Shown here one piece after another: positions 52,079-62,199 of a DNA stretch of 64,000 bases. Both the position numbers and the translations under genes were made by a program. How positions within the stretch are numbered: position 1 is the stretch's first letter; each line of letters begins with the position of its first letter. The stretch is from assembly GCF_034480035.2 (NCBI RefSeq), contig NZ_CP118753.2, positions 786,001 to 850,000 of the forward strand, written 5' to 3'. The DNA is from Methanosphaera sp. ISO3-F5 (GTDB taxonomy: Archaea > Methanobacteriota > Methanobacteria > Methanobacteriales > Methanobacteriaceae). The notes beneath the pieces are model-generated. The model was not told where the DNA came from and did not search any database. It was given only the letters and a program-made list of their open reading frames with translations.

Positions 52079-52483
52079 TTATTTTTTTAGTAATTTTGTC
52101 CATTCTGGATGATTGTCAACAAATTCTTTTAGTATCAGTTCTAGTCCTATTGCAAATCCATTGTCTTCATCATACCAATTTTTTTCTTTTCTTGTATTGA
52201 TGTATAATATGGAATATGCCTTCATTTTATAGTTTTCATACATTACTGCTTGTGGATATTTTTGATTGTATTCTGTTGGATCTATTTCTAGTATGTAAGC
52301 TAATTTTGTTGGGTATGGTTGGGGACTTTTTTGTAGTTCTTCTCTTATTTTTTGTGCGTATTGTCTGTTTATTCTTATTTTTCCGCTGAAATTTCCTGGT
52401 TGTTGTTCGTACCATTGGAGGTATTTTAGCATTTTTTCCTGTTCTTTTTCCAGTATTTTGTTAATTTCTTTTGTTGTTTTCAA
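52079..52483 (-). CDS. Unknown 134-aa cytoplasmic protein, possible immunity-type gene
   Basis: 134 residues, not recognised. Helical start (EINKILEKEQEKMLKYLQWY), then YPTKLAYILEIDPTEYNQ and MKAYSILYINTRKEKNWYD strands, ending LILKEFVDNHPEWTKLLKK. No signal peptide. Located downstream of the barnase/barstar genes and 70 bp after another unknown small gene on the same strand. Small soluble single-domain proteins in such a place are often immunity proteins, but that is inference. ATG at 52483 follows GGAGATAAACC. Confidence 0.6.
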   Translation of the reverse strand: MKTTKEINKILEKEQEKMLKYLQWYEQQPGNFSGKIRINRQYAQKIREELQKSPQPYPTKLAYILEIDPTEYNQKYPQAVMYENYKMKAYSILYINTRKEKNWYDEDNGFAIGLELILKEFVDNHPEWTKLLKK

Positions 52484-52553: not shown

Positions 52554-52964
52554 TTATTCGTCGGTTATGATTATGTTTTTGTATTGTGGGAATTCTTCTA
52601 TGAAGTCGAATATTTCTTTGTCTAGAAATTCTTCGTATCGGCCTATTGGGTCTGAGTCGGGGTTTGCGTATTTGAATTGTAGTTCGTTTCTTTTTGCGTA
52701 GCTTTTTTGTAGTCTTTCTTTTGTTTTTGGGTCGAAGTTGTTGAATTTTGTTGGTCTGTCGTGGTCGTGTCCTATGTATGCTAATCCGATTGCATTGAAT
52801 CTGTAGGGCATGATTGTTCCTGCGTTTAGTGCTACTTCGTACATTTCGAAGTATTTTTCTGTTATGTATTCATAGTTTAGGGTTACTTTTGATTCTTTTA
52901 TGTGTTTATCTACTTCTTTTAGGTTGTTTATGTAGGTTATATCCCATTCTTTTTCGTTTATCAT
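52554..52964 (-). CDS. Unknown 136-aa acidic cytoplasmic protein
   Basis: 136 residues, not recognised. Many Glu, Asp, Tyr and Phe. Distinct segments: EWDITYINNLKEVDKHIKES, PYRFNAIGLAYIGHDHDRPT, YANPDSDPIGRYEEFLDKEI, FDFIEEFPQYKNIIITDE. No signal peptide or membrane helix. It lies 156 bp beyond the second barstar on the same strand. The stop is followed by a C-rich stretch and T/A runs. Role unknown; immunity or regulatory gene for a toxin locus is possible. Confidence 0.6.
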   Translation of the reverse strand: MINEKEWDITYINNLKEVDKHIKESKVTLNYEYITEKYFEMYEVALNAGTIMPYRFNAIGLAYIGHDHDRPTKFNNFDPKTKERLQKSYAKRNELQFKYANPDSDPIGRYEEFLDKEIFDFIEEFPQYKNIIITDE

Positions 52965-53120: not shown

Positions 53121-53363
53121 TTAATCTTCAACATAAACAGTTAACTTATCTGACTTACTGCTAATTGATATAAATAAGTCTAGTAATGTGTTAGTCATAC
53201 AACCTGTATTAATGATATGTATCTCAGTTTCTTCTTCCAGGTTTTCTAGAAATTCTTCTAGTTTTTCATAACTACTATCATAATCCGGTAATTCTAGCAC
53301 GTCCTGCAGGTAGTACTTAGGATCTTTTCTAATTATTTTTCCATTAATTTCTATTAATTTCAT
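53121..53363 (-). CDS. Barstar-like ribonuclease inhibitor (copy 2, diverged)
   Basis: 80 residues with the barstar fold pattern: start KLIEINGKIIRKDPKYYLQD, then LELPDYDSSYEKLEEFLENL, then a strand IHIINTG and C-terminal KLTVYVED. Compared with copy 1 (about one third alike by eye), the barnase-facing Asp residues in NLDALYDCL align with Glu36 and Glu40, allowing a two-residue insertion. It begins 6 bp after copy 1, so it is translated from the same message. It may inhibit the same RNase or a different one. Confidence 0.75.
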   Translation of the reverse strand: MKLIEINGKIIRKDPKYYLQDVLELPDYDSSYEKLEEFLENLEEETEIHIINTGCMTNTLLDLFISISSKSDKLTVYVED

Positions 53364-53369
53364 GGCGTA

Positions 53370-53615
53370 TCATTCATCACATATAAAGTATAAGAAGGTA
53401 TTTTCTAATGATGCATCAAAGAATGTGTCTATGAGGTCTTGGTTTACATATTCACTATTTATCAGTTCTATTTCTGTTTCGACTCCAATTTCTGTCAGGC
53501 AATCATATAATGCATCAAGGTTTCTACCATAGTAATCTGGAAATTCCAGTATTTCTTTTAGGTAGTCATGTTTTTTTTCTTTAATTATTTTACCATCGAG
53601 GATTATGTGTTTCAA
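53370..53615 (-). CDS. Barstar-like ribonuclease inhibitor (copy 1)
   Basis: 81 residues, close to barstar of Bacillus in pattern: HIILDGKIIKEKKHDYLKEI, then EFPDYYGRNLDALYDCLTEI. Asp34 and Asp38 correspond to barstar Asp35 and Asp39, which cover the barnase active site. Ends TFLYFICDE with an acidic tail like barstar's Glu76 area. TTG start; its AGGAG site overlaps the TAG stop of the barnase gene, so the two are tightly coupled. Cytoplasmic inhibitor that would protect the producer from any barnase that is not exported. Confidence 0.88.
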   Translation of the reverse strand: MKHIILDGKIIKEKKHDYLKEILEFPDYYGRNLDALYDCLTEIGVETEIELINSEYVNQDLIDTFFDASLENTFLYFICDE

Positions 53616-53626
53616 TGTGTTGTCTC

Positions 53627-54088
53627 CTATATTTCTTTGAATGTTTCGTAATGGTCTTCTGTGTAGTAAACTTTGTAGTCCTGGGTGGAGTATACTATTC
53701 TTTTTGCTCCTCTGCTTGTTCCATTTGCATCTATGTCACATTCAATATATTTGCTTTCTATATGTGGTAGGATTCCTTGTCGGTTTGTGAACACATCTCC
53801 TCCTATGCTTTTTCCTGGAGCGTAACTTTTAAGTGGTCCTCCTTTCCATCCTAGGCTTTGTGCTTCTTTTTTGGTTATATAATTACTTGGTAGTTTATGG
53901 TATTGTTTTATGTATGCTGCTACCTCGTCGGCTGTTATGTATTCTCCACTTTCTATTACAGTTGTGTTATTTGTACTGTTTAGTGTGGTGTCTGTATTGT
54001 TTGAATCGGATAATGCTCCTGTTCCAAATAATCCTCCGAGGAGTGCTATTATTATAATTATTATAGCGGATATTATTTTATTATCCAT
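53627..54088 (-). CDS. Secreted or membrane-anchored barnase-type ribonuclease
   Basis: 153 residues. Residues 1-26 form a hydrophobic export or anchor segment (IISAIIIIIIALLGGLFGTG). Residues 27-48 are a Ser/Asn/Thr linker. Residues 50-153 match Bacillus barnase over its whole length: ADEVAAYIKQYHKLPSNYIT, then EAQSLGWKGG, APGKSIGGDVFTNRQGILP, YIECDIDANGTSRGAKRIVY and YYTEDHYETF. Catalytic equivalents are present: Lys65 (barnase Lys27), Glu116 (Glu73), Arg126 (Arg83), Arg130 (Arg87), His146 (His102). It should cleave single-stranded RNA. ATG 54088 is chosen because GAGGTGG lies 6 bases before it. Two barstar genes follow in the same operon. Confidence 0.92.
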   Translation of the reverse strand: MDNKIISAIIIIIIALLGGLFGTGALSDSNNTDTTLNSTNNTTVIESGEYITADEVAAYIKQYHKLPSNYITKKEAQSLGWKGGPLKSYAPGKSIGGDVFTNRQGILPHIESKYIECDIDANGTSRGAKRIVYSTQDYKVYYTEDHYETFKEI

Positions 54089-54529: not shown

Positions 54530-57500
54530 ATGAACAAAAACAATAAAAAACTATTCATAATAACAACACTAGTATTTCTTTTAGTTGGACTAAACACAAT
54601 AACAGCAAACGAAATAAACGAAAACCAAACAACAAACATACAAGAAAAAACAACACAAGAAATAAACACAGAAATAACAACAAACACACAAAAACAACAC
54701 AACCACCAACAAGAAAACAAGAAACAAATACACAAAACAAAACAAAACACAAAACAAGACACCCCTAAAATAACAACAAACCTGGAAATCAAATTCCAAA
54801 ACAACCCAGAAGACGAAATATATAAAACAACACACATAAACGAAGAATACATAATAGACATCTCACTTACAAAAGATCCAGACCAAACACCACTACCAGC
54901 AACAATACAACTATACCTACAACAAGACACACAACCCTTAAACATAACCCTAAACCAATCAGGACAAACACAACAAAAATACACAGCACAAACACCCGGA
55001 ACATACGAAATACATGCAGAATATCAAGGAAACAACGAATACGAAAACACAATAAGTAACACCCTAATACTAAGCATAGAACAATACACTCCAACAATCA
55101 CAACCAACACAATAGAAAACACATGCTACAACTCAACAATCACAATCAACGGAACACTAACCCTAGAAGACACACCAATGATAAACAAAAACATAGAACT
55201 ATCATTCAACAACAACCACATAACCACACTAAAAACAGATACCCACGGCCAATTCACATACACATTAAACCTCGAAAACGTACCAATACAAAATAAAGCA
55301 CTAATCCTCCTAGAATACACTAGTGACAACATAACACATACAGACGCATACCAAGAAACAAGTTTTGACATAGAAAAAATCAAAAACAACATACAAACAA
55401 ACAAAATAGAAAATACCATAGTACTAAACAACATAAACATAAACGGAAAAGTAACAAGCGAAAACAACAAAACATACACACAAACATTAACAGCAATAAT
55501 AACAAACACAGACACAAATACACAAGTATACAATAACACAATATCCATACCCAAAGGAACATACTCCATAAACTATACTCCAATAACAAGTGGAAACTAC
55601 ACAGTAAAACTAATAACACCCGAAGACGAATATTACCTAAACAGCACAAATCATACAGAATTCACAGTAGAAAAAGCAACACCCACACTAATACTAGAAG
55701 ATGCATATCACATAACAGTACAAGAAAACATATCAATAACAGGAAAACTAATAACAGAATATCAAAAACCACTAACACACACAAACATAACCATCTCAAC
55801 ACAAAATCAAACAATAACAACACTCACAACAGACGAAAACGGAATGTTCAACTTTACAAACTACATATTCAATGAAAGCATAGAAGACGAATATCTGAAA
55901 ATATACTTTGACGTCACTAATAACACCAACTGTAACAACATACATAACGAAACAAAACTTTATATAAATAGAAGAAATACAAATATAACCCTCAACACAG
56001 AGACACATATAAAAATAAACGGAACTCTACACATAAAAGGACAAATAAAAGATGCAAAGAACCAATCAATAAAACCCCTGGGAACAATCACAGCATACAT
56101 AGAAGATAACATAATAAAAGAAAATATACAAATAACAAATGGAGAATACGAAACAACCATAAACATCAAAGAAAATTACATAGGAAAAGACAAAATCAGC
56201 ATAAAAACAGTATTCATACCAGAAAACCCCCTAGTATACAGCACAGAAAATTATGCAAAACAAACAATCACACACCAACCACTAAACACACAACTAACAA
56301 TACAAGTCAATAATTCCCATGTGGACACTAAAGTGAATATAAGCATAACCCTAGAAGATGAAAACAAAAACAAGTTAGATAAAACAGTAAAAATCACAGT
56401 AACCGACCAAGAAAACAACAAAATCCTCGACAAAACATTAACATTAAACAATGGAAAAAACAACACATCATTCACGCCAAACAAGGAAGGAATATACAAT
56501 ATTATCACAGAATATGCAGGCGAACCAAATATCTACACACAAACAACAGCATCCAAGGAAATCATTGCTACTAAAACAGACACAAAACTAGTAACCAGTA
56601 CACCAAACAGATCATACGTGAATGACACAATCAAAATCACAGGAAAACTAGTGGATGAAAACAATCAAACAATAACCAACACGAAACTCAATATACTCAT
56701 AAAATCAGCAAATACAAACACGTCCGACATTATACAAACAAGAGCAACAGGAAGCTACGAATACGAATTCAAACCACAAGAAACACAACAATACAATATC
56801 ACAATAATATTCAATGGAACATATAAATACAATCAATCCCAATCACACATCACAATAACACCAATTAAACACAGTACACACACCACAATAACAAAGATTA
56901 ACACATCAAAATATAATTCAACCATAACCATAACAGGACAAGTACTTGATAACGAAAATAACCACACAGTCAATGGAACAGTAACAATAATACTAAACGA
57001 CAATATAATCACTACAATAGCATTAATAAACGGACAATACAAAACAACACACACAATAAAAACAATACAAGACAATAAACTACAAATAAAATTCAATGAA
57101 AACAATGTATACACACAATCAAACAAAACAATAAACTTTGAAACAACACCATTAACAACAAAAATCACAGCAAACAAGATACCAAGCACAGAAATAAATG
57201 AAACAATAACAATCAATGGAAGAGTCACTGATGAAAACAATAAAGATGTAGATGGAAAAGTACAAATATACATCAACAATCAAAGCACTATCAGGGAACT
57301 GAAATTAAACAATTCCACATACCAATTCACATACCAAACAGTTAAAATGGGACAGAACACGCTGAACATAATATTCACACCAGACACAAACATATACACA
57401 ACCACAGGAATTAACACGACATTCAATGTAATCCGAACAAACCTTCAATTATCAAACATGGAAAAACAAGCCGATAAAAAAGATGATACAATCACAATAA

Positions 57501-59257
57501 TTGGTAAACTAGTAAACAATAACAATATTCCAACAAACAATATAAAAGTCAACATAATATGCAACAATAAAACATATACTCAAACAACAAATAATGACGG
57601 AATTTTCACTATAAAAACAGACAGGTTACAGCCAGGTAATTACTCAGTACTGTTAACAGTAAAGCAAACAGATTACTTTAACGAGTACGATCAAGATATG
57701 GGAAATGTGATTATAGAAAAGAAAACACCAGTCATAAATCTGGACAATATAGAAAACACAACATATTCCAAACAACTAATCATAACCGGAAACCTAACAG
57801 ACAATTATAACAGGCCACTCACAAAACAAAACATAATAATCAAAACAGATAACACGGAATACAAGACAATAACTGATGATAATGGAAAATATAATATAAC
57901 AATAGAAAACTTCCAAGCAGGAATAAACAATTTAACCATAATCGTACCGGAAACCGTGAACACTAAACAAAGCAGTTTAAACAAAACATTCAAAGCAGAA
58001 AAAGAAGATGCGAAGATAATACTAGACCTTCCAGAACAGGTAGTGCCTGGTCAAACATTATCTATTCAGGGAAAACTAGTTAACATAGAAAACCAGCACA
58101 TACCCTACAGGACTGTTAACATCACAGTAAATAACCAAACATTCAATGCAGTAACCGATGCTATGGGCAGATTCATAAAAAACATAACCAATATTAATAT
58201 GGGAAAATATGATATAAATGTGATATTCGAAGATTCTAACTATAATACGATTATTGCTCATAAAACTATTAATAGTAACAAAGTAGATGTACAGGTAAGC
58301 GTGGATAACATAGTAGCACGAGTTGGAGAAAACATAAAATTTCAGGCAAAGGTACATGATAAGTATGGAAATCCTGTTTATGGAGGAAACCTTGTATTTA
58401 AACTAAACGGTAGAACATTAAGAAGTGACGGCAGATTTGACACCAACAATAGTTCTGTTATAAAGTTCAGTGTTAAAAACGGATTAGTGGAATACATATT
58501 AACTGCAGATTTATATCTTAGGAATGGAAAAAATATCACGGCCAGTTATAGTGGATCATATAAGTATAATAGTGCAAAATCAAATATTGCAGTTGCAAAC
58601 ATACAACTAAGATATGCCAGTATTAAAGTAACAACAAACACAGGTAAAGTAAAACATCATGAAATCATTACTTTCACTGCCAGAGTAAAAGATACAACAC
58701 CAAAATCTAATAAAAACTTATTAAATAATGATGCTCGCATATTTTTTAAAATAAATGGTGTAACAATCAAAGACAAAAATGGGCAAATAATTAAAACAAA
58801 AATAAAAAACAATACTTCAACATTAAAATATAATATTACAACAATGGCAGGCATAACTAAAAGCAATACGCTAAGAAATTATGTTGTCACAGCTGTATAT
58901 GATACACCATATTATTATCCTGTAAACAATAAAAACACGACAAGATTCAATGTTGAAAGGTCTCCTGTAAATATTAATATACTAGAAGCAAGAGTGAATA
59001 AGGTATTAGTGTTGAGGGGTAATTTAACAGATTATCTGGGGTACCGGCTCGTTGGCAAAAGTAAAATATGTATAAAGATTAATGGAGTTACTTACAAGGA
59101 AAATAATTCCACTAAGTATTATACTATTAAAAATGGTGTGATAAACATAGATAACATAAATGTTAAAAATGTGAAGGTTAAAAGCTTAGAAATTGTTACC
59201 GGACAAAGACTCGCATATCTTGCAGCTAGAAAAAAAATATCTAAGATAACAAGTTAA
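54530..59257 (+). CDS. Large adhesin-like surface protein with about 15 Ig-like repeats
   Basis: 1575 residues. Signal peptide at about 1-24 (LFIITTLVFLLVGLNTITA). Residues 25-85 are an Asn/Thr/Gln/Lys-rich linker. From about 90 to the end there are about 15 Ig-like domains, each with a start such as TITITGQVLDN, TIKITGKLVDE, TLSIQGKLVN or LVLRGNLTD. Many NxT/S sequons suggest heavy glycosylation. No C-terminal membrane helix, so attachment must use wall binding. First two thirds use almost only A/C-ending codons, and the last third (after about 57,900) drifts to T-richer codons. Likely a fibrous adhesin. Divergent from the barnase operon. Confidence 0.86.
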   Translation: MNKNNKKLFIITTLVFLLVGLNTITANEINENQTTNIQEKTTQEINTEITTNTQKQHNHQQENKKQIHKTKQNTKQDTPKITTNLEIKFQNNPEDEIYKTTHINEEYIIDISLTKDPDQTPLPATIQLYLQQDTQPLNITLNQSGQTQQKYTAQTPGTYEIHAEYQGNNEYENTISNTLILSIEQYTPTITTNTIENTCYNSTITINGTLTLEDTPMINKNIELSFNNNHITTLKTDTHGQFTYTLNLENVPIQNKALILLEYTSDNITHTDAYQETSFDIEKIKNNIQTNKIENTIVLNNININGKVTSENNKTYTQTLTAIITNTDTNTQVYNNTISIPKGTYSINYTPITSGNYTVKLITPEDEYYLNSTNHTEFTVEKATPTLILEDAYHITVQENISITGKLITEYQKPLTHTNITISTQNQTITTLTTDENGMFNFTNYIFNESIEDEYLKIYFDVTNNTNCNNIHNETKLYINRRNTNITLNTETHIKINGTLHIKGQIKDAKNQSIKPLGTITAYIEDNIIKENIQITNGEYETTINIKENYIGKDKISIKTVFIPENPLVYSTENYAKQTITHQPLNTQLTIQVNNSHVDTKVNISITLEDENKNKLDKTVKITVTDQENNKILDKTLTLNNGKNNTSFTPNKEGIYNIITEYAGEPNIYTQTTASKEIIATKTDTKLVTSTPNRSYVNDTIKITGKLVDENNQTITNTKLNILIKSANTNTSDIIQTRATGSYEYEFKPQETQQYNITIIFNGTYKYNQSQSHITITPIKHSTHTTITKINTSKYNSTITITGQVLDNENNHTVNGTVTIILNDNIITTIALINGQYKTTHTIKTIQDNKLQIKFNENNVYTQSNKTINFETTPLTTKITANKIPSTEINETITINGRVTDENNKDVDGKVQIYINNQSTIRELKLNNSTYQFTYQTVKMGQNTLNIIFTPDTNIYTTTGINTTFNVIRTNLQLSNMEKQADKKDDTITIIGKLVNNNNIPTNNIKVNIICNNKTYTQTTNNDGIFTIKTDRLQPGNYSVLLTVKQTDYFNEYDQDMGNVIIEKKTPVINLDNIENTTYSKQLIITGNLTDNYNRPLTKQNIIIKTDNTEYKTITDDNGKYNITIENFQAGINNLTIIVPETVNTKQSSLNKTFKAEKEDAKIILDLPEQVVPGQTLSIQGKLVNIENQHIPYRTVNITVNNQTFNAVTDAMGRFIKNITNINMGKYDINVIFEDSNYNTIIAHKTINSNKVDVQVSVDNIVARVGENIKFQAKVHDKYGNPVYGGNLVFKLNGRTLRSDGRFDTNNSSVIKFSVKNGLVEYILTADLYLRNGKNITASYSGSYKYNSAKSNIAVANIQLRYASIKVTTNTGKVKHHEIITFTARVKDTTPKSNKNLLNNDARIFFKINGVTIKDKNGQIIKTKIKNNTSTLKYNITTMAGITKSNTLRNYVVTAVYDTPYYYPVNNKNTTRFNVERSPVNINILEARVNKVLVLRGNLTDYLGYRLVGKSKICIKINGVTYKENNSTKYYTIKNGVINIDNINVKNVKVKSLEIVTGQRLAYLAARKKISKITS

Positions 59258-59541: not shown

Positions 59542-62199
59542 ATGGAGGTGGATGTTATTAATAAAAGATTTAACTTTTTATTTATTTTATTAATAATATT
59601 ACTATTTGCTTCTGTTGTATCAGCAAGTTCTGATAATATTGCAAATAGTACAAGTGACGATAAAATAATTAAAAATGATAATTCTATTGAAGATAATATT
59701 CAAGAAAAAACTATTAATAAACAATCAAATGTATTAAATAAGACAAAAGAAGCTCAAACAAGCAATAAACATAAAACAACTACCTCACTAAGAACATACA
59801 CTAATGGTAGTCATATAATAATGAATTCTACTGTAAAATCAAGTATAAAAGTAAATGAAGGTCATGTAATCTTTAAACTTGATGGTGTAACACTAAAAAA
59901 CAAGGGAAACAATATTAAAGTAAATGTTGTAAATTCCCGGGCAGTGCTAGCAGTATCAGTATCTGAATATAAAGCATTATACTCTAAATCAGAAGCAGTA
60001 TATTCAGGAAGTGACAACTTTGTTAATTCAAGAAAACAAATAAGAAACACAGAATTATTCACACATAATACCACAACATCTTTAAGAACATATTCTAATG
60101 CAACACACATAATCATGGATGCAACAATAAATTCAGATATTCCCGTTTATAACGGTTATGTAATATACAAACTGAACAAAAAAACCCTAAAAAATAAAAA
60201 TGACAACACAATAAAGGTAGATGTACGAGATTCAAAAGCAGTCTTAGCTTTACCAATATCCGAGCATAGAAGAGTATATTCTAATGCTGAAGCAGTTTAT
60301 TCAGGAAGTGCATTATACTCTAAATCAAGAACATTAAACGATAACACACTTAACTTTAAACTCAACCCAAGAATATCCGTGACTGCTAATCAATCATCCT
60401 ATTACCCTGGAGAAAATATAGGCCTGAAAATAACAATACTTTCCGATGAAACAAATAATTTCAATAATGGTAAAGTTGCTATTAAAGTAAACGGTGTAAC
60501 ACTCAAAGATGAAAATAAGAAAAGCATAGTGTACAGGATAAAAGGTGATAGTGTTGATGTATCAGTTCCTGTTCCAAAAGGATTGAAATATAATCATATG
60601 AATATCACAGTATTGTCTGAAGGTAGTAATTATAATGATGTAAAATCAGTTAATAAAATTAATTTAAACCCATTAGACACTAAAATAGTGGTTGACAATT
60701 ATGTTATAGATAATAATAATGATTTCATAATTAATGCAAATATAAAAGATAAATATGGTTATAATGTTATTGGTAAAAGATTCATGGACTTCCTAGTGGA
60801 TGGTAATAAGGTCAGAATCAACGGCAAATCCAAAGTATATGTCATTATGAACGGTAAAGTAGATTTACAAGTTCCCTTAGATCAGTATAAAAAAGGTTCA
60901 CATACAATACAGTTAAGACTTAGATCAGATAGTGCATATGCGTCAAGTTCAAGCACACTATACACTATTAATCTCAGAGAAAAATATGATTCAAACATAA
61001 TCATAGACACTCCACAAAAAGCTAAAGCAGATTCTCAAACAAAACTAAGAATTTATGTAACATATGATGATCAGTCAATACCTAAAACAGTCAATGATGG
61101 AAACATAGTTCTTAAAATTAATGGTCAGTCATTATCATCAAAAGTAACATATGGAAAGGCAATAATCTCATACAAACTCCCAAGTAAAACAGGAGAATAT
61201 ACTATAACTGCTAAATATGAAGGAACTGGTGATTTAAAAGACTCATCATCTAATAAGGTTATAACAGTAACTTCTGGAAGCATATCTTCATCAGAATCAG
61301 CAATACTAGGAAATAAAGATCCTAAAAATGAAAGAATATCCTTTACTAATGGTATACCTAACTTAGTTTACATGACAAACTATGTCTGGGCAGATGAAGA
61401 TGCAACATATACCTTAACAAAAAGTCAGTTAGAAGAAGTATTTAAACAGGATTCCTATTCACTATACTTAAATGGCCACGTATCAAAGTATGTTGCATTC
61501 AAAACAGCAAATGAAAGCGATGTATACCATGTTTTAAAACGAGAAAAATGGAACGTAATTGAGAAAGCAGCTAATAAAGTAAGAGTAAGTAGCAGTAAAG
61601 GAACTTTACCAAACACTTTGACCGTGAACTTAAAAGGAAAACGGTATACCTATGGTGAAGCAAGAGCAATACAAAGCACAGAATATACATGTGGACCAAC
61701 AGCTGCAAGTGTATGTACACAGACACTACGAAACTATGTTAACGAACACACATTAGCAACAGAATTCCATACATATGATTATCGTGGAACTTATGCAAGC
61801 TACATTGATGGTGCAATGCGAAAACATAACATGAAAGCAGTATACTACTATAAGAATAACTTTGACAGTGCATTAACCAAGGTAGCAAATGGAGGATATA
61901 CCTTCATATTCTATGGTGTAAACCATTACGTTTCAATACTTGATGTAAGTAAGGATAAGTCAAAAGTATTAGTGTCCAATTCATATGGAAACTATGATAT
62001 GGGTGGAGGAAAAATCCCTAATGGTTGGGTAACATTATCCTACATGAAAAGCAGATTCTCTTCCGATTCATTTGCCGGATTACTTGTATCACTTGATTAT
62101 TCATTATCATCAAGTACAAAAACAATAGTAAACAATTTATACAACAACTTTGGAAGCAATTGGAACAGACAAAACACAAACGAAGAATTAAATGTATAA
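59542..62199 (+). CDS. Surface protein with Ig-like repeats and C-terminal C39-like cysteine peptidase domain
   Basis: 885 residues. Signal peptide near the start (FLFILLIILLFASVVSA). Two tandem units of about 98 residues at about 76-270 (TTTSLRTYTNGSHIIMNSTV and TTTSLRTYSNATHIIMDATI), then several Ig-like domains to about 590. The C-terminal domain (about 590-870) has STEYTCGPTAASVCTQTL (Cys near 716) and FYGVNHYVSILDV (His near 794) followed by LVSNSYGNYD, where the third catalytic position is Asn. This pattern is that of C39-like (papain-fold) peptidases and recalls pseudomurein endopeptidases; wall remodelling is a fair guess. The ATG at 59542 has no ribosome site before it, while GGAGGTG (59544-59550) points to an ATT at 59557. 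Confidence 0.82.
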   Translation: MEVDVINKRFNFLFILLIILLFASVVSASSDNIANSTSDDKIIKNDNSIEDNIQEKTINKQSNVLNKTKEAQTSNKHKTTTSLRTYTNGSHIIMNSTVKSSIKVNEGHVIFKLDGVTLKNKGNNIKVNVVNSRAVLAVSVSEYKALYSKSEAVYSGSDNFVNSRKQIRNTELFTHNTTTSLRTYSNATHIIMDATINSDIPVYNGYVIYKLNKKTLKNKNDNTIKVDVRDSKAVLALPISEHRRVYSNAEAVYSGSALYSKSRTLNDNTLNFKLNPRISVTANQSSYYPGENIGLKITILSDETNNFNNGKVAIKVNGVTLKDENKKSIVYRIKGDSVDVSVPVPKGLKYNHMNITVLSEGSNYNDVKSVNKINLNPLDTKIVVDNYVIDNNNDFIINANIKDKYGYNVIGKRFMDFLVDGNKVRINGKSKVYVIMNGKVDLQVPLDQYKKGSHTIQLRLRSDSAYASSSSTLYTINLREKYDSNIIIDTPQKAKADSQTKLRIYVTYDDQSIPKTVNDGNIVLKINGQSLSSKVTYGKAIISYKLPSKTGEYTITAKYEGTGDLKDSSSNKVITVTSGSISSSESAILGNKDPKNERISFTNGIPNLVYMTNYVWADEDATYTLTKSQLEEVFKQDSYSLYLNGHVSKYVAFKTANESDVYHVLKREKWNVIEKAANKVRVSSSKGTLPNTLTVNLKGKRYTYGEARAIQSTEYTCGPTAASVCTQTLRNYVNEHTLATEFHTYDYRGTYASYIDGAMRKHNMKAVYYYKNNFDSALTKVANGGYTFIFYGVNHYVSILDVSKDKSKVLVSNSYGNYDMGGGKIPNGWVTLSYMKSRFSSDSFAGLLVSLDYSLSSSTKTIVNNLYNNFGSNWNRQNTNEELNV
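59769..60350 (+). repeat. Two tandem ~98-residue units in the peptidase-containing surface protein
   Basis: Both copies share TTTSLRTY(T/S)N, HIIM(N/D), V.YKL or IFKLDG, TLKNK, V..S.AVLA and EAVYSGS. This looks like a recent duplication, since spacing and most positions are conserved. Confidence 0.75.

What the first reader, a model, noticed from the sequence alone, without database searches (positions are those of the whole stretch)
53121..54088. Barnase/double-barstar operon in a methanogenic archaeon
The RNase protein aligns by eye with Bacillus barnase along the whole enzyme, with equivalents of Lys27, Glu73, Arg83, Arg87 and His102. It carries an N-terminal export or anchor helix and a Ser/Asn/Thr linker. 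It is followed with almost no spacing by two barstar-like genes; copy 1 keeps both Asp residues that block barnase, copy 2 replaces them with Glu. A secreted RNase needs a cell to enter, so this may be an antagonistic toxin against gut neighbours or other archaea. The first immunity gene starts inside the toxin's stop region, which would ensure co-production. Transfer from bacteria is likely.
Basis: partly seen in the sequence, partly recalled or inferred. Interest (0 to 1): 0.85.

Follow-up and report, generated by a model that had tools for sequence, protein, structure and literature searches.

The report
Methanogen barnase with diverging barstar copies
A gut methane-producing archaeon carries, side by side, genes for a barnase-type RNA-cutting enzyme predicted to work outside the cell, for a barstar inhibitor that likely shields the cell from it, and for a second protein predicted to have the barstar shape but lacking barstar's key contact residues; the enzyme gene is in 89 of 150 related genomes searched, 87 of them with the first inhibitor gene beside it.

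The parts
53627..54088 (-). Barnase-family RNase, 153 aa
   Evidence: PF00545 E 3.9e-18; PDB barnase E 9.6e-28; active-site residues
54008..54088 (-). N-terminal hydrophobic segment (residues 1-27), predicted export signal or membrane anchor
   Evidence: most hydrophobic 16-residue window averages 3.09 (Kyte-Doolittle); 88 of 88 archaeal relatives examined have one
53936..54007 (-). Ser/Asn/Thr-rich linker with four N-X-S/T sites
   Evidence: sequence
53630..53935 (-). Catalytic barnase domain (residues 52-153)
   Evidence: alignment
53624..53629 (-). Stop codon TAG overlapping the GGAG ribosome-binding site of copy 1 (TAGGAG)
   Evidence: sequence
53370..53615 (-). Barstar copy 1 (Bst1), 81 aa, motif YYGRNLDALYDC
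   Evidence: PF01337 E 4.1e-13; both Asp kept in 86 of 86 relatives examined
53121..53363 (-). Barstar-fold copy 2 (Bst2), 80 aa, starts 6 bases after the Bst1 stop

Best explanation
The operon encodes a barnase-family RNase that is predicted to be exported and to act outside the membrane, together with a barstar (copy 1) that would bind and block any enzyme left in the cytoplasm. The order RNase, then barstar, with the barstar ribosome-binding site overlapping the RNase stop codon, would make both from one message. The likely job of the enzyme is to cut RNA arriving at the archaeal surface or released around it, as proposed for secreted Bacillus RNases (recalled); this role is inferred. Copy 2 is a barstar-fold paralogue (fold predicted) that has lost the canonical barnase-binding contacts and probably serves another partner.
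For: Enzyme and inhibitor identity. Conservation: barnase in 89 of 150 Methanobacteriales genomes, exactly one match each; Pfam barstar in 87 of 150, all 87 barnase-positive and on the same contig and strand 2-261 bases downstream. K27, E73, R83, R87, N58 in 88 of 88 barnases, H102 in 87 of 88, R59 in 86 of 88; barstar Asp35 and Asp39 in 86 of 86. All 88 barnases have an N-terminal hydrophobic segment, but by a pattern of my own its type differs: lipoprotein box in 14 of 16 sequences of genus g9 (the group holding a 2,937,203-base genome that I recall as M. ruminantium M1), a VSA-type signal end in 40 of 55 of genus g10, helix plus Asn/Thr linker in Methanosphaera. So location outside the membrane would be kept while the way of getting there changed. 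Proteins are 141-159 aa by first start codon, one 171, with no room for a delivery domain. Purifying selection on the RNase domain: median dN/dS 0.10, maximum 0.24 in 32 usable of 105 pairs, 72 saturated. 56 of 67 bacterial relatives have a barstar directly downstream too.
Against: No activity, secretion or binding was measured. G011 has a barnase with an intact active site but no barstar motif in the 8,540 bases fetched and no PF01337 match in its genome, so the inhibitor is not always needed; its R59 is E. The RNA-scavenging role has no direct support: none of the window proteins that I scanned around it is an uptake or nucleotidase gene, and I did not search for such genes genome-wide. The N-terminal segment in Methanosphaera has no clear cleavage site to my eye, and no trained signal predictor was run, so anchored or free is open.
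Confidence: 0.6

Rival explanations
1. Antagonistic toxin: the RNase is released or presented at the surface, enters neighbouring bacteria or archaea and kills them; Bst1 is self-immunity, and Bst2/Bst3 are extra immunity genes against related foreign RNases.
For: Toxin-then-immunity gene order; barnase is a toxin domain of bacterial polymorphic toxins with Imm-Barstar (PMC3482391, passages seen), and the same paper reads additional immunity genes as a possible line of defence against non-self toxins (passages). Gut Bacillota carry close barnases. Three barstar-like genes for one barnase in this genome.
Against: No delivery domain. The interface does not diversify: Asp35/Asp39 86 of 86, K27/R83/R87 88 of 88, so barstars would likely cross-protect and not tell kin from non-kin; but PMC3482391 itself says that immunity families serving one toxin type tend to conserve the interface. 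No Pfam barstar in any of 61 barnase-less genomes, and none by the copy-2 profile.
Confidence: 0.25
2. Copy 2 is a working second barnase inhibitor in which Glu replaces Asp at the two contact positions.
For: Same operon, 6 bases after copy 1; same predicted fold; the two positions stay mostly acidic (E or D at the Asp35 position in 30 of 32, at the Asp39 position in 23 of 32).
Against: Binding segment one residue shorter, Trp38 position E in 26 of 32, Asp39 position Q, K, S or N in 9 of 32; the invariant residues (N7 G8 K9 R12 K13 D14 Y17 Y18 D21 I48 N52 C55) lie outside the barnase-contact helix (contact helix recalled). Two of eight copies in the genomes are not linked to barnase.
Confidence: 0.2
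3. Ordinary type II toxin-antitoxin module acting inside the cell.
For: Small adjacent toxin and antitoxin genes.
Against: 88 of 88 relatives keep an N-terminal hydrophobic segment; one barnase match per genome; the operon sits near thiM-thiE in G113, G117, G124, G126 and G129 as here, unlike mobile modules.
Confidence: 0.05

Closest known systems
Barnase-barstar pair of Bacillus amyloliquefaciens (PDB 1brs, 1bse)
   Same: Enzyme family, all catalytic residues, Asp35/Asp39 of the inhibitor; exported enzyme and signal-less inhibitor (Bacillus side recalled)
   Different: Archaeal host; one operon with two barstar-fold genes; forms with a lipoprotein box or anchor-like helix; inhibitor 8-9 residues shorter
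Simple barnase-barstar systems of methanoarchaea (Zhang et al. 2012, PMC3482391; passages seen)
   Different: The held text (first 300,000 of 357,715 characters) has no occurrence of Methanosphaera or Methanobrevibacter; the passages seen do not describe a second or third barstar-fold gene or the change of export signal
Putative secreted RNase (barnase) of Methanosphaera stadtmanae (Lurie-Weinberger et al. 2012, PMC3445992; one passage seen)
   Same: Same gene family in the same genus, mentioned there among transfer candidates
   Different: A single mention; barstar has 0 occurrences in the main text
Barstar-fold proteins of Salmonella (PDB 5f4c) and PDB 2cx6 (recalled as E. coli)
   Different: 18-21% identity in the structural alignment; no relation in context tested

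Membership tests
Barnase / microbial RNase N1-T1 (PF00545) | Score over the curated cut-off across the whole domain | tested here: met
   66.2 bits against 24, profile 3-97 of 98
Barnase / microbial RNase N1-T1 (PF00545) | Catalytic and substrate residues K27, E73, R83, R87, H102 | tested here: met
   list of residues taken from the finding and recall
Barnase / microbial RNase N1-T1 (PF00545) | Guanyl-preferring RNase activity | not testable with these tools
   needs an assay
Barnase / microbial RNase N1-T1 (PF00545) | Exported enzyme | tested here: inconclusive
   hydrophobic N-terminus in 88 of 88 relatives; no localisation data
Barstar (PF01337), copy 1 | Score over cut-off and Asp35/Asp39 | tested here: met
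   49.6 bits against 23.4; D at both in 86 of 86
Barstar (PF01337), copy 1 | Binds and inhibits the cognate RNase | not testable with these tools
   no complex prediction or assay
Barstar (PF01337), copy 2 | Score over the family cut-off | tested here: not met
   no PF01337 match up to E 1
Barstar (PF01337), copy 2 | Barstar fold | tested here: met
Barstar (PF01337), copy 2 | Asp35 and Asp39 of the binding helix | tested here: not met
   E and E here; D in 7 and 4 of 32
Polymorphic toxin system | N-terminal trafficking or delivery domain with a swappable C-terminal toxin | tested here: not met
   Pfam scan of the window protein only; the relatives by length (141-159 aa, one 171) and reading
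Polymorphic toxin system | Immunity gene directly downstream | tested here: met
Polymorphic toxin system | Variable toxins or diversifying immunity specificity | tested here: not met
   near-invariant contacts, one barnase match per genome
Type II toxin-antitoxin module | Toxin acts inside the producing cell | tested here: inconclusive
   hydrophobic N-terminus argues against; not measured

The most novel reading that the evidence does not exclude
Methanosphaera has grown a three-member barstar guild around one secreted RNase: Bst1 blocks the cell's own enzyme, while Bst2 and Bst3, which shed the Asp39 clamp and (Bst2) fixed a different conserved surface, intercept foreign barnase-type RNases from gut bacteria and other archaea. 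That would be an archaeal poly-immunity set.
Probability: 0.2. Interest if true: 0.65.

Novelty: new variant of a known kind. Interest (0 to 1): 0.42.

Why it matters
Little is known about what gut archaea export to meet RNA or rivals around them. The barstar-fold paralogues that lost the classical contacts are a natural experiment on how a textbook protein-protein interface is re-used. If the enzyme turns out to harm bacteria, it would be an archaeal weapon of a very well understood type.

Tried and rejected
Gene 52554-52964 (with 52079-52483) as further parts of the system: 52554-52964 has matches in 21 of 150 genomes, including all five Methanosphaera without barnase, though a close match (76% identity) in only one of those, G121; diverged relatives exist elsewhere in the genomes. 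52079-52483 was not searched. Treated as neighbours only.

Co-loss of barnase with Bst2 and Bst3: in Methanosphaera 15 of 20 genomes have barnase; Bst2 is in 8 of 15 (6 adjacent, 2 unlinked), Bst3 in 10 of 15, neither in the 5 without barnase. On an enolase tree of 16 of the 20 genomes this gives 3 independent comparisons, not significant (G115 and G116 had split genes, G124 and G125 no match). Two of the absences may be assembly gaps: G119 has no ThiE match either, and the G121 contig ends at the neighbouring gene; G125 is only 72% complete. G111 and G122 keep thiM-thiE with other genes after it and are the firm absences. So I do not claim linkage by loss.

Direction of transfer: the tree used 47 of 88 archaeal and 60 of 67 bacterial domains plus one outgroup; 7 long bacterial rows were dropped and archaea thinned by identity. 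Bacteria were the nearest hits of the query; 108 columns, 47 of 102 inner branches unresolved; so one archaeal group is supported but not its exact bacterial source. Position 59 is R in 86 of 88 archaeal barnases but Y in 51 of 67 bacterial relatives, so the donor may lie outside this sample. Loss of R59 does not follow loss of barstar in bacteria (5 R and 5 Y among the 10 rows that I sorted as without adjacent barstar; L080, whose barstar match overlaps the RNase end, was sorted as having one).

Sigma-70 pattern scan: at chance level, and not the archaeal promoter type. Papers: 10.1128/mBio.00715-19 and PMC6246560 are not held; term look-ups found no barnase in PMC12988326 and PMC12352652 and no barnase or barstar in PMC7772410; PMC11008217: first of two parts read. 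Statements about what is not in print rest on searches of open-licence papers only, of which listings were seen.

Full report
What is there. On the minus strand of the window, 54088-53627 encodes a 153-residue protein whose residues 52-153 are barnase: PF00545 at 66.2 bits, cut-off 24; PDB barnase E 9.6e-28, 56 of 101 aligned residues identical. In front lie a strongly hydrophobic segment and a linker with four N-X-S/T sites. Eleven bases after its stop a TTG starts copy 1 (81 aa), whose GGAG overlaps the stop codon; six bases after copy 1, an ATG starts copy 2 (80 aa).

Which organism. The window lies in a genome of 2,680,162 bases in two contigs, the larger of 2,506,044. These numbers equal those of Methanosphaera sp. 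ISO3-F5, a sheep-rumen isolate (PMC11008217).

How common. In 150 Methanobacteriales genomes barnase is in 89, each with exactly one match, in 5 of 19 genera (g10 56, g9 16, Methanosphaera 15, two others 1 each); among genomes at least 90% complete and at most 5% contaminated in 49 of 90. Pfam barstar is in 87 of 150: all 87 are barnase-positive and 2-261 bases downstream on the same strand. A stricter motif finds it in 86 of 89 loci. G088's contig ends 33 bases after barnase; G030's barstar is found by Pfam only; G011 seems truly to lack one, and has E for R59. Barnase-less genomes with a Pfam barstar: 0 of 61. The search by phylum added one genome and no hit. Other archaeal phyla were not searched.

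What is conserved. Among 88 barnases (the broken G076 left out; the C-terminally broken G038 kept) K27, N58, E73, R83 and R87 are present in 88, H102 in 87, R59 in 86. Among 86 barstars Asp35 and Asp39 are present in 86, while much of the rest varies. The hydrophobic segment is present in 88 of 88 but carries a lipoprotein box in 14 of 16 g9 sequences and the one g2 sequence; two further pattern hits in g10 look spurious because a signal-peptide end follows. This is my own pattern, not a trained predictor. Within Methanosphaera the median dN/dS is 0.10 for barnase (32 of 105 pairs usable), 0.25 for copy 1 (61 of 105, maximum 0.82) and 0.21 for copy 2 (19 of 28, maximum 0.35); most other pairs are saturated.

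Interpretation. Shown: gene identities, order, distribution, conservation. Predicted: fold of copy 2. Inferred: export, co-translation, inhibition by copy 1, RNA degradation outside the cell. I commit to a secreted or surface-held RNase with an intracellular safety inhibitor, at 0.6. The weapon reading stays open at 0.25: the published view of barnase-barstar pairs as perhaps incipient toxin-immunity loci (PMC3482391, passages seen) fits the order, but the single type, near-invariant contacts, lack of a delivery domain and absence of barstars in non-producers do not favour it. That paper also states that one-toxin immunity families tend to conserve their interface, which weakens my interface argument.

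Origin. The archaeal barnases sampled are one group (SH-aLRT 99) beside gut Bacillota, and 56 of 67 bacterial loci show the same pair. A transfer into gut Methanobacteriaceae followed by spread or inheritance is likely; PMC3445992 (one passage seen) already mentions the M. stadtmanae barnase among transfer candidates, whereas the authors of PMC3482391 call the relationship of archaeal and bacterial barnases difficult to ascertain.

Novelty. Barnase-barstar in methanoarchaea is known. New here, as far as my searches of open-licence papers show (numbers under Tried and rejected), are the extent and single-copy conservation, the change of export signal type, and the barstar-fold families Bst2 and Bst3, seen only in Methanosphaera, without the standard Asp39 contact.

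Noticed in passing
genome G000 contig C1:1100063-1100275 (locus L209), outside the window: Third, unlinked barstar-like gene (Bst3) with Q at both Asp35 and Asp39 positions; 10 of 15 barnase-bearing Methanosphaera have one.
   Followed up: yes
proteins P0061, P0066, P0068, P0069, P0074, P0080, P0081, P0082, P0088, hosts unnamed: Nine double-length barnase proteins of about 265 aa. In 7 of 9 two domains could be parsed: the second keeps H102 but has L for R59; the first keeps R59 and has R for H102 in 6 of 7 (7 of 7 with the looser pattern). This looks like one dead domain that could still hold barstar and one live domain with a changed barstar contact.
   Followed up: partly
L192 (genome G011): A methanogen barnase with intact active site, no barstar found, and R59 changed to E.
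   Followed up: partly
window 59542-62199: 885-aa protein with Ig-like repeats and a C-terminal stretch resembling C39-type cysteine peptidases, just under the curated cut-offs; possibly a cell-wall-acting surface enzyme.
   Followed up: no
window 54530-59257: 1575-aa protein with eight Ig-like (Big_3_5) stretches, transcribed away from the barnase operon; probably a surface protein.
   Followed up: no
window 52079-52483 and 52554-52964: Two small uncharacterised genes kept together in several Methanosphaera; no Pfam match over cut-off; the second has diverged relatives elsewhere in the genomes.
   Followed up: partly
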